Of a stretch of DNA of 64,000 nt, positions 34,289-59,744 are shown one piece after another (position 1 is the stretch's first letter; every line of letters starts with the position of its first letter). Location: assembly GCA_028583405.1 (NCBI GenBank), contig CM053243.1, positions 27,804,116 through 27,868,115 on the forward strand, read 5' to 3'. The notes under the pieces were generated by a model. That model was given only the letters and a program-made list of their open reading frames with translations, was not told the origin of the DNA and searched no databases. The position numbers and the translations under genes are program-made. The DNA comes from Pogonophryne albipinna (taxonomy: Eukaryota; Chordata; Actinopteri; Perciformes; Artedidraconidae).

Positions 34289-34330
34289 AACATGAGTAGT
34301 AATAATCATGCCCCTTTCGTCTCATTAGTA

Positions 34331-34940
34331 TGCATAAAAAGTGACACGTGGACACGCCCCGAATTATGCAAATGAGCTAAGTCCCGCCTCCCATTGTTCG
34401 AGACCCTTTGATGTGAGTGGGTACAATTATGTTAATGAGCTAAGTCCCGCCTCCCATTGTTCGAGATCCTTTTATGTGATAACAGATAGGTGTGAAAAGC
34501 CCCCCTGTGTAGTGCCTTTGTTGTCTAATTCTTTGATATATTGATTAAGGCAGTCTCTTTGAAGTTATGTTGTCTGGCCCCCTGTCCCCTCACACCCCTT
34601 TGTTGTCTAATTCTTTGATGTATTGATTAAGGCAGTCTCTGTGAAGTTATGTTGTCTGGCCCCTGTACCCCTTTTGTAGTCTAAGCCTTTGATGTGAGTT
34701 GTTATAACAGGTAGGTGTGAAAAGCCCCCCCCCCCCTGTGTAGGGCTTTTTGTTGTCTATTTCTTTGATGTGTTGATTAAGGCAGTCTCTTTGAAGTTAT
34801 GCTGTCTGGTCCCCTCAGGGTTGTCTAATCTAATTAGCCTTTGATGTTTTGCCCTTTGATGTGAGGTGTTATAACAGGCAGGTGTGATTTCACACTGGTG
34901 TGTTATAAGCCTTTGATGTTAATCTAGGTGTCTCTTTGAA
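34331..34940 (+). repeat. Terminal repeat cluster of the left arm, possibly regulatory
   Basis: Two 63-bp units starting at 34,363 and 34,426 share GAGCTAAGTCCCGCCTCCC. The first contains a perfect octamer ATGCAAAT, the second has ATGTTAAT at the same place. A second motif family, with TTTGTTGTCTA and GGCAGTCTCT and TGAAGTTATG, recurs at about 34,517, 34,599 and 34,749. A GC-box-like CCCGCC and a CCATTG (inverted CCAAT-like) occur in the first pair. A promoter or replication role is inference. The mirror copy lies at 50,270-50,890. Confidence 0.6.
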
Positions 34941-35089
34941 GTTATGCGTGAGACTGTCTACCCCCCGCCCCCTCCCAGCCCAGGCCTCTCCTCCTTTCTC
35001 CACCCCTTCCTTTGGCTATGAGGCTAGCAGATAGTGGGGGATGGAATTAGATGAAAATAGAAATATGCTCAAACTAATTAAAAAGACAG

Positions 35090-35560
35090 TAATTTCCACT
35101 TACCAAGTCACCTTGTAAAAAAGGAAAATGGTCAAGAGACTCCTGTGACAACTTACCGCCATCCGTCCGGGGCGCCAGTCAAGAAACGAATGCCTCAGCT
35201 GTGCGGGAGTCAGACGCCTACAGCCAGAGATCTGTGCACAAACTTATCTCGTGCCCTCTTTTGGTAATGTGAGCGTGTTCATGTGTGCTGGAGGAGGGGC
35301 TCTGTGAGGAAGTGGCAGATTTTCAGTTGTGTACTTTTTCAAATACGTAAAGAGGGAAATAATAAAACAATATAAAAAAACATGATCTTTGTCTTTTTTT
35401 ATAATTACTTTACACCACTATAAGAATTTCCTGTATGCAACAAAAAAAAGGTTTGACTGGTGAAAAAGACTCACTTTTACAGGGGGGCTCCGCCTCCCCC
35501 TCAACATAACAAGTCCCGCCCTCCTCAACAGATCATTTAAAAGTAAGGCGGTGGAAATAG
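35090..35560 (+). pseudogene. Decayed partial copy of the 268-aa gene (left arm)
   Basis: 35,135-35,240 resembles the first 40 codons of the gene at 35,643, including the Thr-Thr-Tyr-Arg-His and Lys-Lys-Arg-Met blocks, but out of frame with its ATG-like start. 35,455-35,540 resembles the last codons and 3' flank of the same gene. The middle is replaced by a host-type interspersed repeat (about 35,225-35,345), which also occurs at 51,590-51,730. The same arrangement is in the right arm (49,700-50,110), so the decay came before arm duplication. Confidence 0.65.
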
Positions 35561-36707
35561 ATGAAAAAAGAAATACGCTCAAACTAAATAACAAGCCAGT
35601 CATTTACACTCACCAAGTCACCTTTTAAAAAAAAAAAAAAAAATGGCCAAGAGACGCCTAGATATGGGTTTAATCAGCGAGACGCCTGTGACAACTTACC
35701 GCCATCTGTCCGCAGCACCAATCAAGAAACGAATGCAGTATCTGGGCCGGGTTCAGACGCCTCCAGCCGAAGAACTTCATGAAGAATGGACTCTGAAAAA
35801 TGGCGATGTTTGGGGTTATGTATTCAACTATATGGCGAATGAACTGCATTTCTACAATCTGAAGAATGGAGAAACGTATGGACCCCGTAGTGTTAAAGCG
35901 ACACTGACCTCAACAGATTGGGCTGTGTTAACTCTAGTGTCTTCCAGAGATCTCCACGCAACCACTGTATCGGAAGAAGTAGTGCATCAAGAAACCATAG
36001 TGGAACCAGCGGTGTACAAGATATTTGCAACGAAAAGCAAAGAAACGCAGACAGCATACGAGATCAAAGAAGCGTTTTCACCGCTGCCCCTCAATGTGAA
36101 GGAATAAGAAGAAGGAGATATCCCCCCGCCGCCAGAAGTGAGAAGAGTCCTGACAAGCACCGCCTGGGAAACTAAAAGCGGACCATCGGGGCGATGGTAT
36201 TACCGTGCAAGCCGTTTGGTGACGCTGGGGAAGGACCAGAGACGTGCACACATAGACTCTAGGTAGTGCTTGAGCACCTGCCCGTTTTGCCCTTTGGACA
36301 GCAATGTGCCCTTTTGAAAGTTCGTTTTTCACAGTTGTTTTTTTTACAGTGTACTGTATGTGGCTCATGGTAACATCGATCAATTCTGGATTAAAAGCTT
36401 CTAATATATACAACAATGCCCCAAATGCGCGTTGTAATTTTGTCAGACATCCCCACACGTGCCCCGCGGCACTCCCGTACATGCCCTGGCTGCAGCCCCT
36501 CCCTTCCCTGTTCTCAACGTGAACGCGCAGCGCGCAGAGCTCACAGTCAGTCACTCAGTCAGACAGGCCACGGCGGGTGTGTGGTGCAGCAGCACGCAGC
36601 AACATGATTAAAAGTGCCCTAGTGACGACCAAGTAAGTAACCACCAGGTAACAAATACAACAAGTGTATTGTTTAATCCCCTAAATCAGATGCCAAACTA
36701 AACTATA

Positions 36708-36940
36708 CAGGGTTCGTACGGTCATTGAAAACCTGGAAAAGTCATGGAAATTCAAAATGCAAATTCCAGGCCCTGGAAAAGTTATGGAAAACAATATTTT
36801 TCCCAAAGTTTTGGAAAAGTCATGGAAATGTAACTAAAGTTGCGTCAAATATAAATTACATTTTATCTAATCGACGAAATAATCTGCGGTCGCGAGCTGT
36901 TATGTGCCATCATGACGCGCATGGTGTTATTTTTTAATAT
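36708..36940. mobile_element. Left end of a second hAT, truncated
   Basis: It starts CAGGGTTCGTACGGTCAT and continues with repeated TGGAAAAGT(C/T)ATGGAAA units, a familiar teleost hAT terminus. I found no matching CGAACCCTG right end inside the host element. Confidence 0.55.
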
Positions 36941-37109
36941 ATGAAGCACGAGCTGTGTGCTCGAGTCTTCCTGCCTGTCGGGTTGGCTGAACTCTGCTGC
37001 TCCGGGATGAGGGTCAGCTACATTATCTACAGTGTGTTCGTTAACTGTGCGGAGTCACTGTGGCACAGACTGAGTCGCTGGTGAACAGCTGTTAGAACAG
37101 GCCATTCAC

Positions 37110-37707
37110 GGAGCGTCCACACAGCAGCGTGCGTTGACGCTTGGCGGTGGGCGTGTCTGAAGCTTGGGGATTTTTTGCGAGCAACGCGACCAACAACCAA
37201 TCACATGAATCTCTCGCCCCCGACATACAAAGCAATAGCAATGTTAAAACGAAGTAAACTGGATATAAAATCCCCAAACAGGCGAAAACCTACCAGTTTC
37301 ACCCACTGTCTCTGCCTCCTCACTCCAAGCCTCGCTCCTCCGGTTTGTATCCCGGTAGATGAACAGAGACTGATCATTCAGCACCGGGTGATTCACTACC
37401 GCTATAATGAATTTTCCCTCAATTTTTTTGAATATGAGGAAATGACCTGCGTAGTCTCTCCCAGCATACACGCGGTTTGATTGGCTAGCGCTTGTACTGG
37501 CAGATTTGTATAAACGGGATTTCATTGACTGACGCCTCCGTCGAGGCGCCCAAAAGTTGAACATTGCTCAACTTTTGAAGCCAGCAACGCCAGCAACGCT
37601 CCACGTCGCTTCCCAAAATGCAGTTCGGCTAAAAGTGACGTCACCCCATTCAAAGTGAATGGGCAGAAGCGTTGGAAGCTTCAACGCACGCCGCTTTGTG
37701 GACGGGC
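37110..37707. mobile_element. MITE with CGTCCACA terminal inverted repeats
   Basis: The left CGTCCACACAGCAGCGTG and the complement of the right end, CGTCCACAAAGCGGCGTG, form a terminal inverted repeat of about 30 bp with few mismatches. It keeps a minus-strand ORF (37,244-37,564) that resembles a MADF domain, a domain found in PIF/Harbinger accessory proteins. A target duplication could not be defined. Confidence 0.55.
37244..37564 (-). pseudogene. MADF-like ORF fragment in a MITE
   Basis: The 106-codon ORF opens with ATG. It contains FIIAVVNHPVLNDQSLF followed by YRDTNRRSEAWSEEAE, which resembles the first half of a MADF domain (L-I-x-x-V-x-x-x-P-x-L-Y-D, then AW-x-E-I-A). The end of the ORF does not look like the rest of that domain, so this is likely a leftover exon of a Harbinger-type Myb/MADF protein. 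It may now be non-functional. Confidence 0.4.
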
Positions 37708-37782
37708 CGTCAGAGCAGAGCGGCAGAGCGTGATGTGAACTGAAAAGTTTTTCTGTCGCAATATCATTTAAGGAATCGTTGA

Positions 37783-37808
37783 GTTAGCTAGCTAGCTAGC
37801 TAGCTAGC
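37783..37808. repeat. (TAGC)n microsatellite
   Basis: About six TAGC units inside the hAT insertion. Confidence 0.9.
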
Positions 37809-37879
37809 ATTGTCACTATCTGCTAACGTTAGCTTTAGCCTTCGTTTTTTTTCATAGGCTATAAACAGAGGTGGTATAA

Positions 37880-38075
37880 GTACAGAGATTGTACTAGAGT
37901 AGAAGTACTCAGATATTGTACTTTAGTAGAAGTACTCAGATCTTGTACTTAATAAAAGTAGAAGTACTCAGATCTTGTACTTGAGTAAAAGTAGAAGTAC
38001 TCAGATCTTGTACTTGAGTAAAAGTAGAAGTACTCAGATCTTGTACTTGAGTAAAAGTAGAAGTACCAGAGAGTA
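37880..38075. repeat. Tandem repeat of about 34 bp (GTACTT/AAGTAC motif)
   Basis: Units containing GTAGAAGTACTCAGATCTTG and TACTTGAGTAAAA are repeated about five times. The preceding CAGAGGTGG at about 37,868 looks like a hAT-type left end, so the array may be the end of another nested element. Confidence 0.75.
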
Positions 38076-38680
38076 GGAATACTCTGTTACAGTAAAAGTC
38101 CTGCAATCAAAATGTTCCTCAAGTGAAAGTAGAAAAGTATTATAAAAATACTAAGAGGCATGAAGATACATTTTCATAATGCTCAACAGTGCTGCCAAAA
38201 TTATAAACTGACTGCTACACAATTAAAATAAATGCTTTTATATATTTCTATTAGATGTAACTCTTTGGCGTTTCTGTTATTATTACCTGCTGCTTTAGTT
38301 GTTCTGACTGCTAAAATCCTCTGTTATTCCTAATTTTAAAGCCGATATTCCGTGGGGTCGGATCCTTGTCACCTTTTTCATACCTGATGAGTTTGCATCC
38401 CTGACTACAGTTGCTTTAGCGTGTAGAAGTTAGTAAGCCTACTATTTGATTTGTTTTAGATAGGCATCTGCATCAGACAGCATATGGTTATTGAAATAAA
38501 TATATATGCAATTACGACATACAAGATGTGCCTTTAATAAATCTCACACTACTAAGGCAGCCGGTGGTTCCACCAGGGGCATCAATCCCGGGGGGGGGGG
38601 TTCGTTAAATAAATGTTAAAATAATTAATTTTTTGATAATAAATCAGTAAAATCAGGTACAAATAAGAATTAAATAACAT

Positions 38681-38707
38681 AACCCTAACCTAACCCTAAC
38701 CCTAAAA
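38681..38707. repeat. Short telomere-like CCCTAA repeat
   Basis: About four units of the CCCTAA type, one of them shortened. Too short to be more than an interstitial telomere-like or chance repeat inside the hAT insertion. A G-run lies at 38,590-38,600. Confidence 0.6.
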
Positions 38708-39090
38708 CCGAAAATAAACTAACAAAATCCGCCATTATCCGGCACATTTTTGCGCACAATTTCGGCGCGACCGCCACAACGACTCAGAAGGTGCCCTTTT
38801 TTTTTCTCTTGAGCACCTGCCCCTATAAATGTCTGTGCACGCCACTGGGAAGGACCCCTCTGATGATTTTGTTTTGGAGTATTTCAACTCTACATGCGGG
38901 GTTTTTCAGACATCCTTGCGGGTGCCTCTGACTGCTTGGCTGAAAATTATTGATGGAAAAGCTACAAAGCTTAAAGAACTTTTGAAACAGAGTCAGACAT
39001 CGATAGACATTATACTGGTGAAAAAGACTCTCACTTTTGCAGAGGACTCAGCCTCCCACTCAACATAACAAGTCACACCCTCCTCACCAG

Positions 39091-39113
39091 ATCATTTAAA
39101 ACTAAAGACCCCT
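39091..39113 (+). promoter_or_regulatory. Candidate shared promoter element (left arm, first site)
   Basis: ATCATTTAAAACTAAAGACC is close to the sequence at 41,324-41,346, at the same kind of place: after a gene or gene relic and ahead of the next ORF. TTTAAAA could act as a TATA-like box. It also overlaps a shared AAGTC-C-CC tract a few bases upstream. Function is inferred from recurrence only. Confidence 0.4.
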
Positions 39114-39127
39114 CAAAGAACAGCATT

Positions 39128-39310
39128 GTGTTTTCTGCCTATGTAAAAGGTCTTACGAAAATGTGTTATCTCTGTATCAAGATGATGTGTTTAAAAATGA
39201 ATCTTGTGAAAAATACCAACGGTGTGAGAGACGTCATAAAGACACTCATTTTAACCACAGTGTTTGGTCTCTACAAATGTTTAAAGATTGTTACAAAATG
39301 TAAAAAATAA
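39128..39310 (+). CDS. Small hypothetical ORF (left arm), truncated
   Basis: The frame opens with GTG; the first ATG is at residue 12, leaving 49 codons. The product would be hydrophobic and Lys-rich with several cysteines (MCYLCIKMMCLKMN near the start). One base is missing near the end relative to the right-arm copy, which removes eight residues. No family is recognised. It lies just downstream of the candidate promoter element, but its shortness and lack of an early ATG make it doubtful. Confidence 0.25.
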   Translation: MFSAYVKGLTKMCYLCIKMMCLKMNLVKNTNGVRDVIKTLILTTVFGLYKCLKIVTKCKK

Positions 39311-39544
39311 AAAAAGGTATGGAGACAAAATTAATTCAGGTGACTCTTTCTTTATTAGGAAAACAAAAATATAATACAAATGGTTTAAGGGGTAAAATGT
39401 AACCATCTTGGACTTAATATTCTAACAAAATACAGAACAGAATACATTTTCTTTTAAACGCACTTTTTGAAATTATTTATTTATTATTTCAGTGGAACAA
39501 TCCAGTTTTTTTGTTAACATCAACGTTTTTTTCTCTTTTCTTGT

Positions 39545-39820
39545 GTTACTAAGATACTTTTGGACACACTGGCGTATGCAACACTTAACAACTGGTAGAT
39601 TATGAAGTACTTTGTAAGGAATTTGGTTTTCTTTTAATGGCAGGGTTTTTTTTTTGCTGTAAAAACACTTGTTCAGTTAAACAAGGTTTTTTTCTTTTCT
39701 GATAACCTTACATATTTTAGTTATTTTCTGCTACCAAGATACTTTAATATACACCTTGATGTATGCAACACTTAACAAAGGGTATAATATGAAGTACTTG
39801 GTAAGGAATGGGGTTTTGTT
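39545..39820. repeat. Duplicated 85-bp unit in the arm's non-coding part
   Basis: Two units with TATGCAACACTTAACAA and TATGAAGTACTTTGTAAGGAA start about 184 bp apart. A related motif, GTAGATAATGAAGTACTTTG, appears in the central array (43,549 and 44,300), linking arm and centre. The mirror copy is at about 46,330-46,610. Confidence 0.6.
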
Positions 39821-39823
39821 TAA

Positions 39824-41012
39824 GGCGAGACACCCCAGGTGAATAGGGTAATTTTTTTTACTTAAAGGTATCAGCTAGAAATTTCTCCAGTTAATTACTT
39901 ACAATAAGGCAATTGTCTTTTGTATTACAAGTTTTCTGAAATAGCATGTTTAAATATGCAAATTACCCATTATCTCAATAAATATGCACATCTTTTAACA
40001 CATTTCAGGAATCGAAATCTGAACTTTGGATAAAGCCAGGTTCAAAATTATTGTTTCATTTTGATGTCATATTAGTATCTAAGGCTTTTATAGAAGGGAT
40101 ATTGGATATCTCTTTTTATCACTCCATAAATCAGAAAATACTGTCAACAGCTCTAAAATATCTATTTTCGCCATGTTTTTAGGTATACAATGTTGTATAA
40201 TTCAGGCTATGAATGATATATGAACAAACCCTTCTGTAAAAGCCTTCATAATATTGATAGGAATATAACTGGAAGGTTTGGTGTATGTACTTGCTACTGA
40301 AGTTGAAATTTCAAACTCAGAGTAGGAGAAAAAACTCATTTTGAGAAAACGACCTTTAAAGATTGCAGTGAGGCGCTAGCTAAACCCTCCTGTTCTTTGG
40401 ATGACAGCTTGCGCATCGACGCACTCCGTGAAGGTATTTCATGTTTTGGGTCATTTGTTTTTTGTATAACCTTGCTTCTGCAAGTGACAATTGTTGTCGT
40501 CTTCTCTGTGAACGCTTTTTTCGCCGTTCTTTTGCCATTTTGAGATTTCAATTTCTAGCGGAAAGCTAACCAGGAAGTGTTTTAGCACACCACGTGACGC
40601 ATCTGAACGAATCACGTTGTCAGAAATTGACACCAGCCAATGAGATTTTGTTTCTTGGTTTAAGACCCCTTTGTGCTTTCACGATTGGTTGCTGATACAA
40701 AGGAAATGACCATATTTGGATCCAATGAGATTGTGCAGGAGAGACACAGCTTTCCAACGATATCTCTGTTGACATGGTGCACACAGCGGTCACTGTACTT
40801 TATGTTACGTTAGAATGCTAACTTTTGGTGAATTTAGGAGAAATCTACAGACGCAAATAGACAAACTATAGTAAAATAAACATTAAAATGTGTATTTTGT
40901 ACGTTTTCCTTCCAAAAGCCTGAAAGAAAACATGTTATAGAATCAAAATAGCACAAAATCTCAAAATTGACCAGTACTGGAAAAACGATGTTTTTGCCTG
41001 CCGTGTCTCGCC
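39824..41012. mobile_element. TTAA-flanked element (Kolobok- or piggyBac-like), left arm only
   Basis: The ends are GGCGAGACAC and GTGTCTCGCC. TTAA is present on both sides (39,820-39,823 and 41,013-41,016), while the right arm has a single TTAA at the matching place, giving the empty site. A TTAA duplication with GG-starting ends fits Kolobok better than piggyBac, which usually starts CC. Two short minus-strand ORFs (40,336-40,633), one Lys/Ser-rich, have no recognisable domain. Confidence 0.8.
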
Positions 41013-41189
41013 TTAAGGGTGCAAAACTTTAGAACTGGGTAAAATATTCATTAATTTGTAATGAATAGAGTTTCTTTTCTTTTGATTTTCAACATACTAT
41101 TTTGTACACAATGACTTTTCCATATTTCTGACTAACTATACTTTTGACTTTTTCCGCAAAATCTTGACAAACTATTACTTATTCTTAAA

Positions 41190-41345
41190 TTTGACCTATT
41201 GCTGCTTGGTTGGAAATGATAGATGAAAAAGCTACAACGATTAAAGAACTTTTAAAAAAACGTTCAATTCTCCAGATGACTCCTCCCCATTCAACGCAAT
41301 AAGTCCCACCCTACACTCAGCAAATCATCTAAAACGAAGGACCCC
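41190..41345 (+). pseudogene. 3' relic of another copy of the 268-aa gene (left arm)
   Basis: The reading AAWLEMIDEKATTIKELLKK resembles the C-terminal part of the 268-aa protein around residues 225-243, and the 3' flank shares the AAGTCCCACC tract. The rest of that copy is absent. It shows that the gene was once present in tandem between the small ORF and the 168-aa gene. The mirror relic is at about 46,020-46,150. Confidence 0.6.
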
Positions 41346-41346
41346 A
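41324..41346 (+). promoter_or_regulatory. Candidate shared promoter element (left arm, second site)
   Basis: ATCATCTAAAACGAAGGACC resembles 39,091-39,113 and lies 26 bp ahead of the ATG of the 168-aa gene. The promoter role is inferred from recurrence and position. Confidence 0.4.
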
Positions 41347-41371
41347 CTAAGACGACCGTTGTAAACTAGCC

Positions 41372-41878
41372 ATGGATCTGAGAAAAACCAAGACTCCCCC
41401 CGCGAGTTGCAGCCAGGAACAGACTCCTGGACTAACATCATCACCACCATTTTGGACACCCGAATCCTGCAATACTACTGCTGCTGATTTTGCTCCTTGG
41501 GCCAAGACGTCTCTGTTTGTGGACACAGTGAAATCGGTGTTGGTTGATATTGTGGAGAGGGTGATACACCGGTACAGAGAAGAAATCTGCAACGGGTGCC
41601 GAGTCAGTCACCCCGGCCAGAGGCAACACGATTTTCTGAATGACATGTCCGATTTTTACTTCAGAAACAATTACAACGCGTTAATGAAAAGACTCTGGCT
41701 CACCGACTTAATTACTGAGATCGACCAGACTCTTATTGATAAAGACATTTTCACGGATGATTGGAGGATCCAAGGCGCTTCGGAGGCTTTTCTTCACAAT
41801 ATCAAGAATTGCAGACGCCTCAAGGAGAGACTTGAAAAGATCCATGCCGAGTTGGATGGAGAAGAAGAAGACTATTAA
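41372..41878 (+). CDS. Hypothetical 168-aa protein with a Cys/His cluster (left arm)
   Basis: The ORF starts at ATG 41,372, just after the second candidate promoter element, and ends with an acidic tail (GEEEDY). Residues 1-45 are Ser/Thr/Pro-rich. Residues 46-72 look like an amphipathic helix. Cys73, Cys76, His80 and His86 form a C-x2-C-x3-H-x5-H cluster that could bind zinc. The rest is helical and charged. It differs from the right-arm copy at two residues, so both look intact. I recognise no family. The 110-aa ORF follows 69 bp downstream on the same strand. Retention of both copies suggests recent duplication or some constraint; I cannot tell which. Confidence 0.6.
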   Translation: MDLRKTKTPPASCSQEQTPGLTSSPPFWTPESCNTTAADFAPWAKTSLFVDTVKSVLVDIVERVIHRYREEICNGCRVSHPGQRQHDFLNDMSDFYFRNNYNALMKRLWLTDLITEIDQTLIDKDIFTDDWRIQGASEAFLHNIKNCRRLKERLEKIHAELDGEEEDY

Positions 41879-41947
41879 CCAGCAGTTGACTGAAGCCAGG
41901 GATTTTGTTAGATACATTGACTTTTTTTCTTTAAAGTAAAGTAAAAA

Positions 41948-42280
41948 ATGGGAAACTACTATGCAAAACGCTCTGTATATAGTGATCATAATGTAGTCAA
42001 TACCCTTTTAATAAGTGTGGTGATGGGGACGATTGAAAACAGAATGAGTAGTGACCCCCGTGTAAACAGAATGGCTGAAGTTTGTAAACTGGAAGACATT
42101 TTGGATATCGTTCGTTCTGGCAGTACTATTCCGGGTCATTGGGAAACGATTGTAAACGAGACATTTAAAGTGGTCCTGGAATCTTCATTTTCCGAAACAT
42201 TCTGTAACATTACCGCAGAAATGGAACAAACATCAAAAGTGTATCATGTGCTCTCATTGTATGCTCTGTTTTTTTTTTAG
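41948..42280 (+). CDS. Hypothetical 110-aa protein (left arm, C-terminus shortened)
   Basis: The ORF starts at ATG 41,948, 69 bp after the stop of the 168-aa ORF. The product starts Met-Gly-Asn, and a glycine at position 2 would allow N-myristoylation, although residue 6 is Ala instead of the usual Ser or Thr. The remainder is predicted helical, with no recognisable domain. It matches the right-arm ORF at 45,008-45,394 closely for about 104 residues. A longer T-run at about 42,269-42,278 then shifts the frame and ends the protein early, while the right-arm version runs to 128 residues. Confidence 0.5.
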   Translation: MGNYYAKRSVYSDHNVVNTLLISVVMGTIENRMSSDPRVNRMAEVCKLEDILDIVRSGSTIPGHWETIVNETFKVVLESSFSETFCNITAEMEQTSKVYHVLSLYALFFF

Positions 42281-42545
42281 ATGTAATGCATTTTTGTGTC
42301 AAAAACAGAGCATACAATGAGAGCACATGATACATTTTAAATGTTTCGTTTACAATACTATTACTATATATGAAAGCAAAAAATAAATAAAACACATTTT
42401 CATTTTGTAATGGTTGTTTAATTGAAAACACAACATTCAACACATTTTCATAAAAAAACACATTACATTTTACCAAGTTAGTGTCGTAGTGCATACAAGG
42501 TAATAGACTTAACGATTTGCACTGCTGCTTCTCTCCGCGTTTCAT
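42241..42545 (-). pseudogene. Inverted 3' fragment of the 110-aa gene at the edge of the centre
   Basis: 42,303-42,334 is an inverted copy of 42,241-42,270, giving a hairpin with a loop of about 32 bases. Reading on along the minus strand, the sequence IVNETFK then jumps about 70 bp ahead to the YHVLSLYALF end of the 110-aa protein. So a third, internally deleted copy points back toward the left arm. The 111-codon ORF covering it is not credible as a separate gene. Confidence 0.55.
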
Positions 42546-42589
42546 TTACAGTGATCGGTTTATCGTTCAATTCCCATACTCTACACGCA

Positions 42590-42880: not shown

Positions 42881-44530
42881 TCCAATTCAGTGAAACAAGG
42901 CAGTTTTGAACATTTGACAGATTTATGCTTAATTCTCTCAAAATGATACTGAAAGATACACTTTTATGTTTAAAAGCTGACCACTACCATGAGATTTCGT
43001 CAAGCATCTGACTCTTAATGGCAGTTTGTCATTTTGAGGCTATTTCAGTGAAACAAGGCTGTTTTGAACATTTGACAGATTTATGCTTAATTCTCTCAAA
43101 AGGTTACCGAAAGATACACTTTTCTTTTTAAAAGCTGTCCACTACCATGAAAGTACTGGAGACTGCCCCTGTCTTGTCACATAGATTATACTATCTGTGT
43201 CGTAGTAGAAAACTCTGTCCTGTAATTTCTCCAATTCACTGTACAGTTTCAGCCAGTTTGTGATTTTGACGCTATTTCAGTGAAACAAGGCTGTTTTGAA
43301 CATTTGACAGATTTATGCTTAAATTCTCTCAGAAAGTTACTGAAATATACACTTTTGTGTTTAAAAGCTGACCACTACCATGAAGTACTCTGTTTGAGTA
43401 GATTTCGTTAGTATTCTGACTCTTAATGGCAGTTTGTGATTTTGAGGCTATTTCAGTGAAGGCCGTTTTGAACATTTGACAGATTTATGCTTAATTCTCT
43501 CAAAAAGTTACCGAAAGATACACTTTTCTTTTTTAAAAGCTGAAAAGTAGATAATGAAGTACTTTGTGTCAGTAGATTTCGTTAAGAATCTGACTCTTAA
43601 TGGCAGTTTGTGATTTTGAGGCTATTTCAGTGAAGGCTGTTTTGAACATTTGACAGATTTATGCTTAATTCTCTCAGAAAGTTACCGAAAGATACACTTT
43701 TGTATTTAAAAAGCTGACCACTACCATGAGAGTACTGGAGACTGCCCCTGTGTTGTCACATAGACTATACTATCTGTGTGGTAGTAGAAAACTCTGTGCT
43801 GTAATTTCTCAAATTCACTGTATAGTTTCAGCCAGTTTGTGATTTTGACGCCATTTCAGTGAAACAAGGCTGTTTTGAACATTTGACAGATTTATGCTTA
43901 ATTCTCTCAAAAAGTTACTGAAAGATACACTTTTGTATTTAAAAGCTGACCACTACCATGAAGTACTCTGAGTATATTTCGTTAGGATTCTGACTCTTAA
44001 TGGCAGTTTGTGATTTTGAGGCTATTTCAGTGAAACAAGGCTGTTTTGAACATTTGACAGATTTATGCTTAAATTCTCTGAGAAAAGTTACTGAAAGATA
44101 CACTTTTGTGTATAAAAAGCTGAAAAGTAGATAATGAAGTACTCTGTGTCAGTAGATTTCGTTAGGATTCTGACTCTTAATGGCAGTTTGTCATTTTGAG
44201 GCTATTTCAGTGAAGGCAGTTTTGAACATTTGACAGATTTATGCTTAATTCTCTCAAAAAGTTACCGAAAGATACACTTTTCTTTTTTAAAAGCTGAAAA
44301 GTAGATAATGAAGTACTTTGTGTCAGTAGATTTCGTTAAGAATCTGACTCTTAATGGCAGTTTGTGATTTTGAGGCTATTTCAGTGAAGGCTGTTTTGAA
44401 CATTTGACAAATTTATGCTTAAATTCTCTGAGAAAAGTTACTGAAAGATACACTTTTGTGTATAAAAGCTGACCACTACCATGAAAGTACTCTGTTTTAG
44501 TAGATTTCGTCAAGCATCTGACTCTTAATG
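42880..44530. repeat. Central tandem array, about nine copies of 171-232 bp
   Basis: The marker GCTATTTCAGTGAA recurs at 43,039, 43,271, 43,447, 43,621, 43,850 (one mismatch), 44,021, 44,201 and 44,375, with a partial copy near 42,886. The spacings are 232, 176, 174, 229, 171, 180 and 174 bp. The two long units carry an extra block containing GAGACTGCCCCTG. Each unit has GAACATTTGACAGATTTATG and AGATACACTTTT. No ORF is present. Confidence 0.9.
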
Positions 44531-45029
44531 GTCCTCTCTAAATTTGATTCAGGGTTTGTTTTAAATGATTTGTGCTTTGTGTGTACAGACACACAAAAAA
44601 CACTGAAAACACAAAAACCATACTAGTGTTTTCTGTGTGTCTGTGTTTCTGCATTTCTGTGTGTTTCTGCGTTTCTGTGTGTTTCTGTGTTTCTGTGGGT
44701 GTATAATACGCACGTTTCAATACACATTTATCCTACATCTTCCCTGTTATCCCCCCCTTGTTATAATGAAGACAACAGTGCATGTGAAGGACTGTAATAC
44801 ACATGTATCAGACCCGCTCCCCTTGCTATAATGAAGACAACAGTTTTTAAATGTAAAAAAACCCACTTTTTTTATTTTGTAAAAATGTCCTATTTACATT
44901 TTTATTTTTTCACACACAAAAATCAATAGTTATACTGATTGTAACATCCCCAGGACCGTCTCCAGTTTAGAATTCCCCATATTACTGGAAATATCATGGT
45001 GGAGTTTTTACACTTCAGTCAAAATATTC
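44531..45029. repeat. Remainder of the centre, with a GTTTCTGTGT minisatellite
   Basis: 44,630-44,700 repeats the motif GTTTCTG(T/C)GT about seven times. A segment ending in TATAATGAAGACAACAG occurs twice (44,761-44,778 and 44,826-44,843). Nothing coding is seen. Confidence 0.75.
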
Positions 45030-45394
45030 ATGTGTATGCTGTTTTCGACATAAAGATGCATTACATCTACAAACAGAGCATACAATGAGAGCACATGATA
45101 CACTTTTGATGTTTCTTCCATTTCTGCGGTAATGTTACAGAATGTTTCGGAAAATGAAGATTCCAGGACCACTTTAAATGTCTCGTATACAATCGTTTCC
45201 CAATGACCCGGAATAGTACTGCCAGAACGAACGATATCCAAAATGTCTTCCAGTTTACAAACTTCAGCCATTCTGTTTACACGGGGGTCACTACTCATTC
45301 TGTTTTCAATCGTCCCCATCACCACACTTATTAAAAGGGTATTGACTACATTATGATCAATATATACAGAGCGTTTTGCATAGTAGTTTCCCAT
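45008..45394 (-). CDS. Hypothetical 128-aa protein (right arm)
   Basis: This is the longer version of the 110-aa ORF at 41,948-42,280, opening with ATG on the minus strand. It begins Met-Gly-Asn, so N-myristoylation is possible but the site is imperfect. The last 20 or so residues extend into the start of the centre and are absent from the left copy because of a T-run difference. It differs at about three other residues. It lies 68 bp downstream of the right-arm 168-aa gene on the same strand, in mirror image of the left arm. No family is recognised. Confidence 0.55.
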   Translation of the reverse strand: MGNYYAKRSVYIDHNVVNTLLISVVMGTIENRMSSDPRVNRMAEVCKLEDILDIVRSGSTIPGHWETIVYETFKVVLESSFSETFCNITAEMEETSKVYHVLSLYALFVDVMHLYVENSIHMNILTEV

Positions 45395-45462
45395 TTTTTA
45401 TTTTACTTTAAAGAAAAAAAGTCAATGTATCGAACAAATCCCTGGCTTCAGTCAACTGCTGG

Positions 45463-45969
45463 TTAATAGTCTTCTTCTTCTCCATCCAACTCGGCATGGA
45501 TCTTTTCAAGTCTCTCCTTGAGGCGTCTGCAATTCTTGAGATTGTGAAGAAAAGCCTCCGAAGCGCCTTGGATCCTCCAATCATCCGTGAAAATGTCTTT
45601 ATCAATAAGAGTCTGGTCGATCTCAGTAATTAAGTCGGTGAGCCAGAGTCTTTTCATTAACGCGTTGTAATTGTTTCTGAAGTAAAAATCGGACATGTCA
45701 TTCAGAAAATCGTGTTGCCTCTGGCCGGGGTGACTGACTCGGCACCCGTTGCAGATTTCTTCTCTGTACCGGTGTATCACCCTCTCCACAATATCAACCA
45801 ACACCGATTTCACTGTGTCCACAAACAGAGACGTCTTGGCCCAAGGAGCAAAATCAGCAGCAGTAGTATTGCAGGATTCGGGTGTCCAAAATGGTGGTGA
45901 TGATGGTAGTCCAGGAGTCTGTTCTTGGCTGCAACTCGCGGGGGGAGTCTTGGTTTTTCTCAGATCCAT
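45463..45969 (-). CDS. Hypothetical 168-aa protein with a Cys/His cluster (right arm)
   Basis: Mirror copy of 41,372-41,878, identical at 166 of 168 residues: Thr22 is Pro here, and Ile145 is Leu. Cys73, Cys76, His80 and His86 are all kept. The ATG lies 25 bp from the candidate promoter element at 45,995-46,017. The protein has a Ser/Thr/Pro-rich start, a helical middle and an acidic tail. The zinc-binding idea rests on residue spacing alone, and the Gly-x-x-x-x-His-Pro-x-Gln context may be part of the motif. Confidence 0.6.
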   Translation of the reverse strand: MDLRKTKTPPASCSQEQTPGLPSSPPFWTPESCNTTAADFAPWAKTSLFVDTVKSVLVDIVERVIHRYREEICNGCRVSHPGQRQHDFLNDMSDFYFRNNYNALMKRLWLTDLITEIDQTLIDKDIFTDDWRIQGASEAFLHNLKNCRRLKERLEKIHAELDGEEEDY

Positions 45970-45994
45970 GGCTAGTTTACAACAGTCGTCTTAG

Positions 45995-46017
45995 TGGGGT
46001 CCTTCGTTTTAGATGAT
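45995..46017 (-). promoter_or_regulatory. Candidate shared promoter element (right arm, near the 168-aa gene)
   Basis: Mirror image of 41,324-41,346, with the same ATCATCTAAAACGAAGGACC sequence on the minus strand ahead of the 168-aa ORF. Confidence 0.4.
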
Positions 46018-46019
46018 TT

Positions 46020-46150
46020 GGTGAGTGTAGGGTGGGACTTATTGCGTTGAATGGGGAGGAGTCATCTGGAGAATTGAACGTTTTTTTAAAAGTTCTTTAA
46101 GCGTTGTAGATTTTTCATCTATCATTTCCAACCAAGCAGCAATAGGTCAA
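46020..46150 (-). pseudogene. 3' relic of another copy of the 268-aa gene (right arm)
   Basis: Mirror image of 41,190-41,345. It again resembles the C-terminal coding part and 3' flank of the 268-aa gene, without the rest of the gene. Confidence 0.6.
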
Positions 46151-46816
46151 ATTTAAGAATAAGTAATAGTTTGTCAAGATTTTGCGGAAAAAGTCAAAAG
46201 TATAGTTTGTCAGAAATATGGAAAAGTCATTGTGTACAAAATAGTATGTTGAAAATCAAAAGAAAAGAAACTCTATTCATTACAAATTAATGAATATTTT
46301 ACCCAGTTCTAAAGTTTTGCACCCTTAAACAAAACCCCATTCCTTACCAAGTACTTCATATTATACCCTTTGTTAAGTGTTGCGTACATCAAGGTGTATC
46401 TTAAAGTATCTTGGTAGCAGAAAATAACTAAAATATGTAAGGTTATCAGAAAAGAAAAAAACCTTGTTTAACTGAACAAGTGTTTTTTCAGCAAAAAAAA
46501 AACCCTGCCATTAAAAGAAAACCAAATTCCTTACAAAGTACTTCATAATCTACCAGTTGTTAAGTGTTGCATACGCCAAAGTGTGTCTAAAAGTATCTTA
46601 GTAACACAAGAAAAGAGAAAAAAGCGTTGATGTTAACAAAAAAACTGGATTGTTCCACTGAAATAATAAATAAATAATTTCAAAAAGTGCGTTTAAAAGA
46701 AAATGTATTCAGATAAAGTATTTTGTTAGAATATTAAGTCCAAGATGGTTACATTTTACCCCTTAAACCATTTGTATTATATTTTTGTTTTCCTAATAAA
46801 GACAGAGTCACCTGAA
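46151..46816. other. Non-coding part of the right arm
   Basis: AT-rich sequence with the 85-bp duplicated unit seen in the left arm. It holds the empty TTAA target site (near 46,328-46,331) that the left arm's inserted element duplicated. Confidence 0.7.
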
Positions 46817-47023
46817 TTAATTTTGTCTCCATACCTTTTTTAATTTTTTACATTTTGTAACAATCTTTAAACATTTGTAGAGACCAAACACTGTGGTTAA
46901 AATGAGTGTCTTTATGACGTCTCTCACACCGTTGGTATTTTTCACAAGATTCATTTTTAAACACATCATCTTGATACAGAGATAACACATTTTCGTAAGA
47001 CCTTTTACATAGGCAGAAAACAC
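46817..47023 (-). CDS. Small hypothetical ORF (right arm), 57-68 aa
   Basis: The frame has 68 codons from a GTG, or 57 from the first ATG. It is Lys-rich and hydrophobic with clustered cysteines near the start and a basic end. It is eight residues longer than the left copy, which has lost a base near its end. Its position just downstream of the candidate promoter at 47,038-47,061 is the main argument for it being real. No family is recognised. Confidence 0.3.
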   Translation of the reverse strand: MFSAYVKGLTKMCYLCIKMMCLKMNLVKNTNGVRDVIKTLILTTVFGLYKCLKIVTKCKKLKKVWRQN

Positions 47024-47037
47024 AATGCTTTTCTTTG

Positions 47038-47061
47038 AGGGGGTCTTTAGTTTTAAATGAT
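47038..47061 (-). promoter_or_regulatory. Candidate shared promoter element (right arm, near the small ORF)
   Basis: Mirror image of 39,091-39,113, lying between the end of the 268-aa gene and the small ORF on the minus strand. Confidence 0.4.
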
Positions 47062-47083
47062 CTGGTGAGGAGGGTGTGACTTG

Positions 47084-47890
47084 TTATGTTGAGTGGGAGG
47101 TTGAGTCCTCTGCAAAAGTGAGAGTCTTTTTCACCAGTATAATGTCTATCGATGTCTGACTCTGTTTAAAAGGTTCTTTAAGCTTTGTAGCTTTTCCATC
47201 AATCATTTTCAGCCAAGCAGTCAGAGGCACCCGCAAGGATATCTGAAAAACCCCGCATGTAGAATCGAAATACTCCAAAACAAAATCATCAGAGGGGTCC
47301 TTCCCCAGCGTCACCAAACGGCTTGCACGGTAATACCATCGCCCCGATGGTCCGCTTTTAGTTTCCCAGACGGTGCTTGTCAGGATTCTTCTCACTTCTG
47401 GCGGCGTGGGGATATCTCCTTCTTCTTCTTCCTTCACATTGAGGGGCAGCGGTGAAAACTCTTCTTTGATCTCGTATGCTGTCTGCGTTTCTTTGCTTTT
47501 CTTTGCAAATATCTTGTACACCGCTGGTTCCACTATGGTTTCTTGATGCACTACTTCTTCCGATACAGTGGTTGCGTGGAGATCTCTGGAAGACACCAGA
47601 GTTAACACAGCCCAATCTGTTGAGGTCAGTGTCGCTTTAACACTACGGGGTCCATACGTTTCTCCATTCTTCAGATTGTAGAAATGCAGTTCATTCGCCA
47701 TATAGTTGAATACATAACCCCAAACATCGCCATTTTTCAGAGTCCATTCTTCATGAAGTTCCTCGGCTGGAGGCGTCTGAACCCGGCCCAGATACTGCAT
47801 TCGTTTCTTGACTGGCGCTCCGGACAGATGGCGGTAAGTTGTCACAGGCGTCTCGCTGATTAAACCCATATCTAGGCGTCTCTTGGCCAT
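47084..47890 (-). CDS. Hypothetical 268-aa protein with two similar halves (intact right-arm copy)
   Basis: The ORF opens with ATG immediately after a run of about 18 A on the coding strand. The start is basic (MAKRRL). Residues 49-98 and 185-230 look like two copies of one unit: a strand-rich stretch, then Ser-x-(Lys/Arg)-x-x-Leu-Thr-x-x-(Asp-)Trp. The first contains KNGETYGPRSVKATLTSTDW. That pattern recalls PC4/SUB1-type single-strand DNA-binding domains (G-x-x-G-(K/R)-x-(S)-x-x-L-x-x-x-x-W), but this is a weak visual match. A Glu-rich linker lies at 153-158. It is the only full-length copy in the window; the left copy is broken, and partial relics flank both. Upstream lies the L2 insertion at 48,023-49,695, about 130 bp from the ATG. 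Confidence 0.65.
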   Translation of the reverse strand: MAKRRLDMGLISETPVTTYRHLSGAPVKKRMQYLGRVQTPPAEELHEEWTLKNGDVWGYVFNYMANELHFYNLKNGETYGPRSVKATLTSTDWAVLTLVSSRDLHATTVSEEVVHQETIVEPAVYKIFAKKSKETQTAYEIKEEFSPLPLNVKEEEEGDIPTPPEVRRILTSTVWETKSGPSGRWYYRASRLVTLGKDPSDDFVLEYFDSTCGVFQISLRVPLTAWLKMIDGKATKLKEPFKQSQTSIDIILVKKTLTFAEDSTSHST

Positions 47891-48022
47891 TTTTTTTTTT
47901 TTTTTGAAAAGGTGACTTGGTGAGTGTAAATGACTGGCTTGTTATTTAGTTTGAGCGTATTTCTTTTTTCATCTATTTCCACCCCCTTACTTTTAAATGA
48001 TCTGGTGAGGAGGGCGGGACTT

Positions 48023-49695
48023 AAGCTAAGGCTACAACCTGCTCCCTCGACCCCATGCCCTCTGCCCTGGTCAAAACTTGCCTACCCATCCTCTGCTCCA
48101 CCATTGTTAAAATCATCAACTCCTCCCTGGAATCAGGCAAGGTTCCCGCCGTCCTCAAGATAGCAGCTGTCACCCCCATCGTCAAAAAACCTGGTCTCGA
48201 CCCCGAGGACCCCAGCAACTTCCGGCCGATCTCCAACCTTCCTTTTCTTAGCAAGATCATGGAAAGAGCAGTTGCTGCCCAACTCCACCATCATATGTCC
48301 GACCATGAGCTCTACGAACCATTCCAATCAGGCTTCAGATCCAACCACAGCACAGAGACGGCCCTTATTAAAATAACCAATGACCTCCTCATAGCCGCCG
48401 ATTCAGGCCTCGTCAGCATCCTCATCCTCCTGGACATCTCCGCCGCATTTGACACAGTCTCACACACTATCCTACTCAACCGCCTATCCGTCTACCTTGG
48501 CCTCTCTGGTACAGCCCTCTCCTGGTTCCATTCCTACCTCTCCAACAGGCAACAGTTTGTGACCATCGGAAAATCCAGCTCTCCCCCAGCCCCTGTCAAC
48601 CAAGGTGTGCCGCAAGGTTCGGTGCTCGGCCCCCTTCTATTCAACATCTACATGCTCCCCCTTGGTGAAATCATCCGCCGACATGGTCTCAACTTCCACT
48701 CCTATGCCGACGACACCCAACTCTACATCAGTACCAATCCATCATCCCAGCTACCCCCACTGTCACTTGTCAACTGCCTCCGCGACATCCAAGCCTGGAT
48801 GTCAAAAAATCTACTAAAACTCAACAATAACAAAACAGAGCTCATGGTTGTGGCCCCAAAAACACTGCTCCGGAAGGTTGGAGATCTGCTCCTCACCATC
48901 GATGGCGGCTCCATACACCCTTCCCCTGAGGTTCCCAGCGTCACTCTGGACTCTAGCCTCACCTTCAACTCCCACATCAGGTCTACTGTCAAAACCGCTT
49001 TCTTTCACCTACGAAACATCTCCAGACTCCGGCCCTCTCTCCCCGACCCCGTTGCAGAAACATTAATTCATACCTTCATCTCCTCTCGTCTGGACTACTG
49101 CAATGGAGTTCTGTTCGGGGTCACCAGCAAAGCCCTGGACAGGCTCCAGTACGTCCAGAACTCTGCAGCCAGGCTCCTCACCCACACTAAGCCCTGGCAA
49201 CACATTACCCCTACCCTCATCCACCTTCACTGGCTCCCGGTCAAGTCACGCATCCAGTACAAACTCCTCCTGCTAACCTACAAATCTCTCCACTCCCTAG
49301 CCCCTCCATACATCTCTGACCTCCTTCAGCCCTACACCCCCTCTCGTCACCTGCGGTCCTCTGACAAAGGGCTGCTCTCCATCCAGCGCTCCAAGCTGAA
49401 AACATTTGGCAACAGAGCCTTCAGTGTCGCAGCCCCCACCCTCTGGAATTCTCTCCCCTCTGCAATCAGGAATGCAGACTTTCTGGACACCTTCAAAAAA
49501 CACCTCAAACACCATCTGTTCACTCGGGCCTTTGGCCTCAACTAATACACAGTACCCAGCAACCTGTTCCTGTTTTGTTTTCTTCAGTCTATGTATCTGT
49601 ATGATTATTATTACTTTTGTTGTGTTACTTCCCATTGTAAAGCGTCCTTGGGTTTCGTGAAAGGCGCTATATAAATTTAAATTATTATTATTATT
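48023..49695 (+). mobile_element. 5'-truncated L2-type LINE inserted in the right arm
   Basis: The unit is a 3' LINE fragment ending in GGCGCTATATAAATT and ATT repeats, the usual tail of fish L2 elements. A 4-bp ACTT flanks it (48,019-48,022 and 49,696-49,699), and the left arm has uninterrupted sequence here (near 35,505-35,515), giving the empty site. It points opposite to the right-arm genes. Confidence 0.9.
48055..49545 (+). CDS. L2-type LINE reverse transcriptase, partial (496 codons)
   Basis: The frame encodes a reverse transcriptase lacking its endonuclease. In order it shows NFRPISNLPFLSKIMERA near residue 60, SGFRSNHSTETAL near 92, the catalytic LLDISAAFDTVSH near 128, GVPQGSVLGPLLFNIYM near 185, and YADDTQLY near 217 with the paired catalytic aspartates. 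The C-terminal part ends with FGNRAFSVAAPTLWNSLP and TFKKHLKHHLF, typical of L2/CR1 proteins. The coding frame already runs from the left edge of the insertion at 48,023. The ATG at 48,055 is simply the first Met in the truncated frame. The frame is uninterrupted, so the insertion is fairly young. Confidence 0.85.
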   Translation: MPSALVKTCLPILCSTIVKIINSSLESGKVPAVLKIAAVTPIVKKPGLDPEDPSNFRPISNLPFLSKIMERAVAAQLHHHMSDHELYEPFQSGFRSNHSTETALIKITNDLLIAADSGLVSILILLDISAAFDTVSHTILLNRLSVYLGLSGTALSWFHSYLSNRQQFVTIGKSSSPPAPVNQGVPQGSVLGPLLFNIYMLPLGEIIRRHGLNFHSYADDTQLYISTNPSSQLPPLSLVNCLRDIQAWMSKNLLKLNNNKTELMVVAPKTLLRKVGDLLLTIDGGSIHPSPEVPSVTLDSSLTFNSHIRSTVKTAFFHLRNISRLRPSLPDPVAETLIHTFISSRLDYCNGVLFGVTSKALDRLQYVQNSAARLLTHTKPWQHITPTLIHLHWLPVKSRIQYKLLLLTYKSLHSLAPPYISDLLQPYTPSRHLRSSDKGLLSIQRSKLKTFGNRAFSVAAPTLWNSLPSAIRNADFLDTFKKHLKHHLFTRAFGLN

Positions 49696-49699
49696 ACTT

Positions 49700-50110
49700 G
49701 TTATGTTGAGTGGTAGGCGGAGCCCCCCTGTAAAAGTGAGAGTCTTTTTCACCAGTCAAACCTTTTTTTTGTTGCATACAGGAAATTCTTATAGTGGTGT
49801 AAAGTAATTATAAAAAAAGACAAAGATCATGTTTTTTTAAATTGTTTTATTATTTCCCTCTTTACGTATTTGAAAAAGTACACAACCGAAAATCTGCCAC
49901 TTCCTCACAGAGCCCCTCCTCCAGCACACATGAACGCGCTCACATGACCAAAAGAGGGCACGAGATAAGTTTGTGCACAGATCTCTGGCTGTAGGCGTCT
50001 GACTCCCGCACAGCTGAGGCATTCGTTTCTTGACTGGCGCCCCGGACGGATGGCGGTAAGTTGTCACAGGCGTTTCTTGACCATTTTTCTTTTTTACAAG
50101 GTGACTTGGT
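49700..50110 (-). pseudogene. Decayed partial copy of the 268-aa gene (right arm)
   Basis: Mirror image of 35,090-35,560. 49,700-49,770 resembles the gene's 3' end, about 49,860-49,985 is a host-type interspersed repeat, and 49,985-50,090 resembles its 5' end. The ORF at 49,837-50,067 is a chance fusion of the 5' relic with the repeat. Confidence 0.65.
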
Positions 50111-50269
50111 AAGTGGAAATTACTGTCTTTTAAATTAGTTTGAGCATATTTCTATTTTCATCTAATTCCATCCCCCACTATCTGCTTGCCTCATAGCCAA
50201 AGGAAGGGGTGGAGAAAGGGGGAGAGGCCTGGGCTGGGAGGGGGCGGGGGGTAGACAGTCTCACGCATA

Positions 50270-50890
50270 ACTTCAAAGAGACACCTAGATTATCATCAAA
50301 GGCTTATAACACACCAGTGTGAAATCACACCTGCCTGTTATAACACCTCACATCAAACGGCAAAACATCAAAGGCTAATTAGATTAGACAACCCTGATGG
50401 GACCAGACAGCATAACTTCAAAGAGACTGCCTTAATCAACACATCAAAGAAATAGACAACAAAAAGCCCTACACAGGGGGGGGGGGCTTTTCACACCTAT
50501 CTGTTATAACAACTCACATCAAAGGCTTAGACTACAAAAGGGGTACAGGGGCCAGACAACATAACTTCAAAGAGACTGCCTTAATCAATACATCAAAGAA
50601 TTAGACAACAAAGGGGTGTGAGGGGACAGGGGGCCAGACAACATAACTTCAAAGAGACTGCCTTAATCAATACATCAAAGAATTAGACAACAAAGGCACT
50701 ACACAGGGGGGCTTTTCACACCTATCTGTTATCTCACATCAAAGGATCTCGAACAATGGGAGGCGGGAATTAGCTCATTAACATAATTGTACCCACTCAC
50801 ATCAAAGGGTCCCGAACAATGGGAGACGGGACATAGTTCATTTGCATAATTGGGGGCGTATCCATCTGTCACTTTTTATGCATACTAATG
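50270..50890 (-). repeat. Terminal repeat cluster of the right arm
   Basis: Mirror image of 34,331-34,940. It keeps the octamer-type ATTTGCAT and the GGCGGG-type block, and the repeated TAACTTCAAAGAGACTGCC motif (seen at about 50,412, 50,562 and 50,645). Confidence 0.6.
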
Positions 50891-50924
50891 AGACGAAAGG
50901 GGCATGATTATTACTACTAACATG

Positions 50925-59668: not shown

Positions 59669-59744
59669 CAGCCTCCTCTCCTCTCCTCGATGAAGGAGCT
59701 GGAAGTTCCCTGTTCCCCAGCTCCAGAGCACGTTCCAGTGTTGG

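What the first reader, a model, noticed from the sequence alone, without database searches (positions are those of the whole stretch)
34295..50918. A 16.6-kb palindromic Polinton-like element carrying an undescribed-looking gene set
Seen: exact AGT...ACT inverted ends, a perfect AACATG duplication, and 4.2-kb arms with the same inward-pointing genes around a repeat-rich centre. Known: 6-bp duplications and AG-starting ends are typical of Polinton/Maverick and adintovirus integration. Inferred: this is a non-autonomous, symmetrical derivative mobilised by an integrase supplied elsewhere. It has much longer inverted repeats than usual Polintons, and all its coding capacity is inside those repeats. 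Symmetrical genomes with duplicated ends are known as defective forms in protein-primed linear DNA viruses such as adenoviruses, which is a plausible route.
Basis: partly seen in the sequence, partly recalled or inferred. Interest (0 to 1): 0.92.

Follow-up and report, generated by a model that had tools for sequence, protein, structure and literature searches.

The report
Palindromic satellites of fish Maverick elements
This fish chromosome carries a mirror-image piece of a virus-like jumping element (a Maverick) that has lost its own copying machinery but is one of many similar mirror-image copies in the same genome, apparently spread by fuller relatives that live there too.

Summary
In detail: AGTAGT…ACTACT ends, perfect AACATG duplication, 4.2-kb arms (97-98% alike), repeat-rich centre. 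Gaps in the arms are later hAT-like, TTAA-type and LINE insertions. The palindrome is not a one-off: of 153 gene A/B loci found in this genome, 59 have both orientations and 57 of those are inward pairs. Ten other palindromes were read at both ends: 19 of 20 ends begin AGT; 9 of 10 have a perfect 6-bp duplication, one 5/6. Possible helpers are resident: PolB elements with such ends, including a 19.4-kb Maverick (C18) with perfect duplication, PolB, ATPase, integrase-chromodomain, and, on the integrase side, gene A plus a gene B homologue. The window's centre keeps two 98-bp PolB pieces over the YYDTDS region and a likely remnant of the integrase start. The two ends of one element mostly agree while ends of different elements differ. 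Best reading: a high-copy, non-autonomous palindromic Maverick family, mobilised in trans, its arms made identical during protein-primed replication. No family was recognised for A, B, C, and selection within the family was not shown. New variant of a known kind.

The parts
34289..34294 (.). left target site duplication AACATG
34295..42271 (+). left arm (with two later insertions; about 4.2 kb without them; weaker pairing runs on to 42320)
34295..34544 (+). left terminal segment, Maverick end motif AGTAGT
   Evidence: end motif in PMC8097293
35643..36107 (+). left copy of gene A: an in-frame stop after 154 codons; further down it is also split by the hAT-like insertion
36237..38847 (.). later hAT-like insertion, 8-bp duplication GGAAGGAC (not part of the element proper)
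39824..41012 (.). later TTAA-type insertion with GGCGAGACAC inverted ends (not part of the element proper)
41372..41878 (+). gene B, left copy, 168 aa
41948..42280 (+). gene C, left copy, 110 aa (3' end altered)
42272..45070 (.). unpaired centre, a little over half of it 129- and 174-bp tandem repeats
43157..43254 (-). 98-bp fragment of a Maverick PolB gene (96% to L051) over the YYDTDS region
43736..43833 (-). second 98-bp PolB fragment (92%)
44694..44780 (-). likely remnant of the start of a Maverick integrase gene (52% over 29 aa with one stop; nucleotide match E 1.9e-6 in the window)
45008..45394 (-). gene C, right copy, 128 aa
45463..45969 (-). gene B, right copy, 168 aa, NGCRVSHPGQRQHDF motif
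47084..47890 (-). gene A, right copy, 268 aa, open
45071..50918 (-). right arm (with one later LINE insertion; weaker pairing begins at 45028)
48023..49695 (+). later LINE insertion, RVT_1 (not part of the element proper; bounds approximate)
50919..50924 (.). right target site duplication AACATG

Best explanation
A non-autonomous, palindromic derivative of resident Maverick/Polinton elements. Each arm is probably the integrase-side end of a Maverick (terminus, accessory genes A, B, C, and the first bases of the integrase gene) duplicated as a mirror image, with scraps of PolB and tandem repeats in the middle. I infer that it arose by snap-back or template switching during protein-primed replication of a Maverick. 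It is now replicated by the protein-primed PolB and inserted by the integrase of fuller Mavericks in the same genome, acting on the shared type of AGTAGT ends. Shown: ends, duplications, family-wide palindromes, PolB elements with the same kind of ends, PolB footprints, arms more alike within than between elements. Inferred: supply in trans, snap-back origin, and annealing of the two arms of displaced single strands as the step that keeps them identical.
For: Ends and 6-bp duplications: ten palindromes, the window and two PolB elements, 12 of 13 perfect, 1 at 5/6 (7 of the ten matched at the first placement of the ends, the other three after moving one end by 3 or 6 bases, the script allowing up to 8). 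They match the published vertebrate Maverick motif (PMC8097293 section 7). 57 of 59 two-orientation A/B loci are inward. The 206-bp terminus bounds three PolB loci on C11 on both sides (92-94%); on C7 one terminus (96% over 187 bases) lies 19 kb from a PolB. C11:1301144-1316291 has GTCAGT on both sides. C18:2974012-2993389 has TACACC on both sides, PF03175 E 7.9e-42, Pox_A32-type ATPase 7.4e-8, rve 1.4e-11 with Chromo 1.7e-8, gene A at 90%, a B homologue at 37%. PolB pieces lie in the centres of the window and of 5 of 17 paired interiors (L032, L035, L036, L038, L040; longer in L040), and in L049 and L050. Arm divergence within elements has median 1.06% (16 of 17 measurable) against 2.68% between (646 pairs); own partner nearest for 25 of 32 arms. 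End cores: 8 of 13 elements have no difference between their ends; 0 of 312 between-element comparisons are identical.
Against: No Maverick with intact A-B-C-integrase in that order was found; C18 has A, a B remnant and a divergent B, and no C was matched in its fetched part. Only 2 of 35 PolB loci have a scored gene A within 25 kb and none has a scored gene B; only the best-scoring candidates are listed, and the C14 case was not read. No movement, packaging or trans-action was observed. Arms could be homogenised by host gene conversion instead: 7 of 32 arms are nearest to another element's arm, and of 13 elements one has 3 and one 11 end differences (ungapped). Selection within the family on A, B, C was not significant, so the genes may be passengers. 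The integrase remnant is short. No PolB piece was found in 12 of 17 paired interiors, and only 8 of 17 show the complete A-B-C...C-B-A set.
Confidence: 0.86

Rival explanations
1. The palindromes are spread as above, but host gene conversion between the two arms after insertion, not replication, keeps them alike.
For: 7 of 32 arms are nearest to an arm of another element. Long inverted repeats are known to convert (recalled).
Against: The outermost ends, which mark the insertion itself, differ by 0 or 1 base in 11 of 13 elements and are identical in 0 of 312 between-element comparisons. The two PolB elements, whose terminal repeats are shorter, also have ends alike: identical and one difference in the 30 bases printed.
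Confidence: 0.09
2. An autonomous virus-like lineage that replicates with its own unrecognised enzymes encoded by A, B and C.
For: A, B, C have no Pfam match; A and C gave no useful fold, B was not folded; relatives at 68-92% exist in outside data.
Against: The proteins are small (268, 168, 128 aa); A and a B homologue occur beside PolB and integrase in a Maverick; ends are those of Mavericks.
Confidence: 0.03
3. A one-off inverted duplication or assembly error at this locus.
For: Large palindromes are a known assembly hazard (recalled).
Against: 33 of 34 neighbouring gene-A pairs are inward inverted at many loci, about 0.5 neighbour pairs expected by chance; different duplications at each of 11 palindromes.
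Confidence: 0.01
4. A cut-and-paste DNA transposon with long inverted repeats, unrelated to Mavericks, that happens to make 6-bp duplications.
For: Length of the inverted repeats (4.2 kb) lies outside the 46-1,447 bp reported for intact vertebrate Mavericks.
Against: The same terminus bounds PolB elements; PolB pieces in the centre.
Confidence: 0.01

Closest known systems
Vertebrate Maverick/Polinton elements (catalogue in PMC8097293)
   Same: (AGT)2//(ACT)2 ends, 6-bp duplications, accessory genes in the end regions (section 7), resident in the same genome
   Different: no PolB, integrase or capsid gene; inverted repeats of 4.2 kb instead of 46-1,447 bp; genes present twice as mirror image; more loci found here than PolB loci (153 A/B against 35; both lower bounds)
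Snapback defective genomes of adeno-associated virus (PMC8235507, passages)
   Same: self-complementary genome made from one half of a virus; needs helper functions; can regulate the full genome
   Different: a parvovirus in particles; here integrated genomic copies that form a lasting family
Symmetrical adenovirus genomes with duplicated ends (recalled; the search listed no paper on them by title)
   Same: protein-primed replication, duplicated end as mirror image
   Different: occasional variants, not a transposon family
MITEs and other non-autonomous transposons (recalled)
   Same: shared ends, moved by enzymes of full relatives, outnumber them
   Different: carry up to three open genes per arm, and the whole arm rather than the end alone is kept alike
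Teratorn (piggyBac-herpesvirus fusion in medaka, PMC5601938, listing and start of abstract only)
   Same: virus-like mobile element in a fish
   Different: piggyBac ends (TTAA target recalled) and herpesvirus genes; none seen here

Membership tests
Maverick/Polinton (full element) | 6-bp target site duplication | tested here: met
   window AACATG; 9 of 10 other palindromes perfect, 1 at 5/6
Maverick/Polinton (full element) | AGT- or AG-repeat end motif | tested here: met
   AGTAGT at both ends of the window copy and of 9 of 10 others; the right end of the tenth (C6) begins AGAAGT
Maverick/Polinton (full element) | protein-primed DNA polymerase B gene | tested here: not met
   in the window only 98-bp fragments in the centre
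Maverick/Polinton (full element) | retrovirus-like integrase gene | tested here: not met
   in the window only a likely remnant of the first codons, with a stop
Maverick/Polinton (full element) | capsid genes, ATPase, protease | tested here: not met
   ORFs of 150 aa or more between the ends are copies of A and B, the LINE and two antisense ORFs. In the 20 fetched interiors ATPase and minor-capsid-like queries found nothing at E 1e-6; major capsid and protease were not used as queries, and the window itself was not queried with these proteins
non-autonomous derivative of Mavericks | same ends as a fuller element in the same genome | tested here: met
   terminus bounds PolB loci on C11; C18 ends of the same kind, 82-85% over the first 100 bases
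non-autonomous derivative of Mavericks | movement depends on the full element's enzymes | not testable with these tools
   inference only
adintovirus (definition in passages of PMC11071296) | PolB with OTU-like domain and adenovirus-like hexon | tested here: not met
   no ORF longer than 285 codons between the ends except the LINE's

The most novel reading that the evidence does not exclude
The palindromes are a lasting lineage of satellite or defective-interfering genomes of vertebrate Mavericks, perhaps packaged in Maverick particles. They compete with their helpers for PolB and may also restrain them by RNA: a transcript across a mirror-image element that carries PolB pieces in both orientations (L032) would fold into double-stranded RNA matching the polymerase's YYDTDS region.
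Probability: 0.12. Interest if true: 0.88.

Novelty: new variant of a known kind. Interest (0 to 1): 0.72.

Why it matters
Mavericks are thought to be integrated viruses with a protein-primed polymerase, but their particles have not been observed (start of the abstract of PMC8097293). A family of mirror-image derivatives whose two ends mostly agree within an insertion and differ between insertions would be a genomic record of that replication. It would also mean that Mavericks have high-copy parasites of their own, and it offers an LTR-like clock (arm against arm) for dating insertions. My searches of the held library for non-autonomous, miniature or palindromic Mavericks or Polintons found no paper with those phrases, and the three papers listed are not about such elements by title and start of abstract.

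Tried and rejected
Structure of gene A (pLDDT 31) and gene C (pLDDT 50, best Foldseek E 1.3): uninformative. The strand-strand-strand-strand-helix order in the A model reminded me of PC4, and gene C of Bcl-2 (both recalled); no call supports either, so I make no claim. Pfam: nothing for A, B, C. PHROGs: nothing for A and B, one weak match of unknown function for C (E 0.008, 15 residues). PDB sequence search for A: one match, E 0.28. Viral contigs: no relatives of A, B or the C18 B homologue, no match to the 20-bp terminus, two pattern matches for the Cys-His motif: L001's frame was proline-rich and unlike B, L002 was not read because the script stopped. Selection test (gapless, near-full copies only): A and C show no excess of silent changes, B leans that way (median z 0.8, 0.0 and 1.6 over 50 draws); raw pN/pS between elements 0.63 (A), 0.55 (B), 0.87 (C), with in-frame stops in 7 of 32, 2 of 22 and 3 of 25 copies. 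I considered that the 98-bp PolB piece is specially conserved (98% against lower flanks) and rejected it, because the flanks are tandem repeats compared without gaps; the 40 scored places are only the top of 1,328 candidates. A first gene-A-only arm comparison (own partner nearest 22 of 34) used a fixed length that runs past truncated copies and was replaced. A post-insertion inverted duplication was rejected because the duplications flank the whole palindrome.
Full report
Anatomy. The element lies at 34295-50918, with AACATG directly outside both ends. Its arms pair in ten collinear blocks, 97.3-98.1% identical over longer stretches. The breaks in pairing are three later insertions: an hAT-like insertion with an 8-bp duplication at 36237-38847, a TTAA insertion at 39824-41012, and a LINE at about 48023-49695. 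Without its two inserts the left arm is 4,214 bp. Each arm reads terminus, a decayed partial copy of gene A (35042-35233 is 72% like 35552-35776), gene A (268 aa), gene B (168 aa), gene C (128 aa), all pointing inward. The left gene A has an in-frame stop after 154 codons and carries the hAT-like insertion further down. A little over half of the centre is 129- and 174-bp tandem repeats.

It is a family. In the genome that holds the window (1.07 Gb, G000) gene A has 143 scored matches of 1,792 candidates and gene B 150 of 542; both are lower bounds. Of 34 neighbouring gene-A pairs closer than 25 kb, 33 are inward inverted, and about 0.5 pairs of any kind are expected by chance. Clustering the scored A and B places gives 153 loci, 59 with both orientations, 57 of them inward. 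In 17 fetched paired interiors, 8 show the complete A-B-C...C-B-A set; the other nine lack B or C on one or both sides, and L032 shows neither.

It moves like a Maverick. For ten palindromes I read both ends. Nine have a perfect 6-bp duplication and one 5 of 6. Seven matched at the first placement of the ends; three needed one end moved by 3 or 6 bases, with the script allowing up to 8. Nineteen of 20 ends begin AGT, the right end of C6 begins AGAAGT. The published vertebrate Maverick motif is (AGT)2//(ACT)2 with 6-bp duplications (PMC8097293: section 7 read, passages). In C12 the two ends of one element differ by one AGT unit, as slippage during protein-primed initiation would give (inference from adenovirus knowledge, recalled).

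Possible helpers live in the same genome. PF03175 finds 78 fragments (none in the 14 control genomes), which I grouped by eye into 35 loci. The window's terminus (206 bp) gave 41 matches from 40 scored of 1,288 candidates. These bound three PolB loci on C11 on both sides (7.9-14.9 kb apart, 92-94%); one more terminus lies 19 kb from a PolB on C7. The C11 element at 1301144-1316291 has GTCAGT on both sides and carries PolB, an ATPase matched in three pieces, and an adenovirus-protease-like ORF (PF00770 E 5e-4, 20.2 bits, just under the 21.3 cut-off). The C18 element at 2974012-2993389 (19.4 kb) has TACACC on both sides and about 308 bp of terminal repeat (92%). It carries PolB as two ORFs, an ATPase and, on the other strand, an ORF that I take for a minor capsid protein (no Pfam support), an integrase with rve and chromodomain, a B homologue (37%), a B remnant, and gene A (90%) next to the terminus. 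Its middle 4.5 kb was not read. So gene A and a homologue of B are accessory genes of the integrase side. A second candidate on C14, with PolB 14 kb from an opposed gene A, was not read. None of the 35 PolB loci has a scored gene B within 25 kb.

Footprints of the parent. The window's centre holds two 98-bp pieces of the PolB gene, 96% and 92% identical to C18's, over the region that encodes YYDTDS there (that this is the polymerase active-site motif is recalled). Five of 17 paired interiors and two of the three fetched places with a single gene A hold it as well, and in L040 it continues further into PolB. Inward of gene C lies an 82-bp stretch like the start of the integrase gene: window 44698-44779, nucleotide E 1.9e-6, 52-55% over 29 aa with one stop. 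It was matched in 11 of 17 paired interiors, in both arms of five (L033, L036, L037, L039, L047); these share descent and so are not independent evidence. The ancestral arm therefore probably read terminus-A-B-C-integrase.

The two arms of one element were near-identical at insertion. Arm divergence (up to 2.45 kb from gene A inward, 16 of 17 measurable) has median 1.06% within elements and 2.68% between (646 pairs); the own partner is nearest for 25 of 32 arms, where about 0.9 would be expected if each arm's nearest were one of the 37 others at random (my arithmetic). At the extreme ends, 8 of 13 elements have no difference between their two ends, three have one, one has 3 and one has 11 (ungapped comparison), while none of 312 between-element comparisons is identical. 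This is what copying one end from the other during replication would produce, and it makes arm divergence a clock like that of LTRs.

How it works, with steps marked. Shown: shared kind of ends, 6-bp duplications, PolB and integrase elements in the same genome, PolB scraps inside. Inferred: a Maverick replicating by protein priming made a snap-back molecule from its integrase-side end. Such a molecule has two good ends and needs only PolB and integrase, which other Mavericks supply. Single strands displaced in replication fold into a long hairpin whose arms correct each other. Snapback genomes of adeno-associated virus are a described analogue (PMC8235507, passages).

Genes A, B, C. Outside this genome there are a few relatives in the protein collection: A 68-79%, B 70-91%, C 71-92%, several of them covering only part. 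B carries a Cys-His stretch (NGCRVSHPGQRQHDC in P0004 and P0006, QHDF in the window copies, YGCQVDHPSQLQHEC in C18). No family or fold was recognised. Within the family, silent changes are not significantly in excess, with B leaning that way, so the open frames may only reflect youth.

Novelty. Searching the held library for non-autonomous, miniature or palindromic Mavericks or Polintons gave no paper with those phrases, and the broader search gave three, none about such elements by title and start of abstract. Only open-licence papers are held. The listings were seen as listings only, except PMC8097293 and PMC8235507 as stated and passages of PMC11071296.

Noticed in passing
window 58232-62733: A DIRS/Ngaro-like retroelement (type recalled from its layout): RNase H-like match (PF17917, E 3e-5, just under cut-off) and a weak tyrosine-recombinase match (PF00589, E 0.002) in neighbouring ORFs.
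   Followed up: partly
terminal positions 7-18 of the 13 elements read: Next to AGTAGT the sequence differs between elements yet mostly agrees between the two ends of one; why the ends vary so much between insertions is unexplained.
   Followed up: partly
L050 (C17:26060524-26070000), L037; also L031, L033, L042, L044, L046: A second type of centre with a lysine-rich gene, as a mirror-image pair in L050 and L037; in L050 one ORF begins with the first residues of gene B. L050 also carries an integrase piece (rve E 2e-12) facing A-B-C.
   Followed up: partly
G000 C8:26256584-26266223 and C8:26389911-26399789: Two elements that mirror each other in position about 130 kb apart: an inverted host duplication or a duplicated haplotype in the assembly.
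   Followed up: no
window 51622-51734: A 113-bp stretch 85% like part of both arms (35230-35344, 49868-49982) lies just outside the element; perhaps a dispersed repeat that entered the arm before the palindrome formed.
   Followed up: no
L034 (C113:726821-734362): A palindrome whose middle holds a frame-broken B copy that keeps the Cys-His motif (QHDC) which the window's B copies have changed.
   Followed up: no
G000 C11:1.20-1.36 Mb: Three PolB loci and several termini lie within about 150 kb, a local cluster of Maverick-type elements.
   Followed up: no
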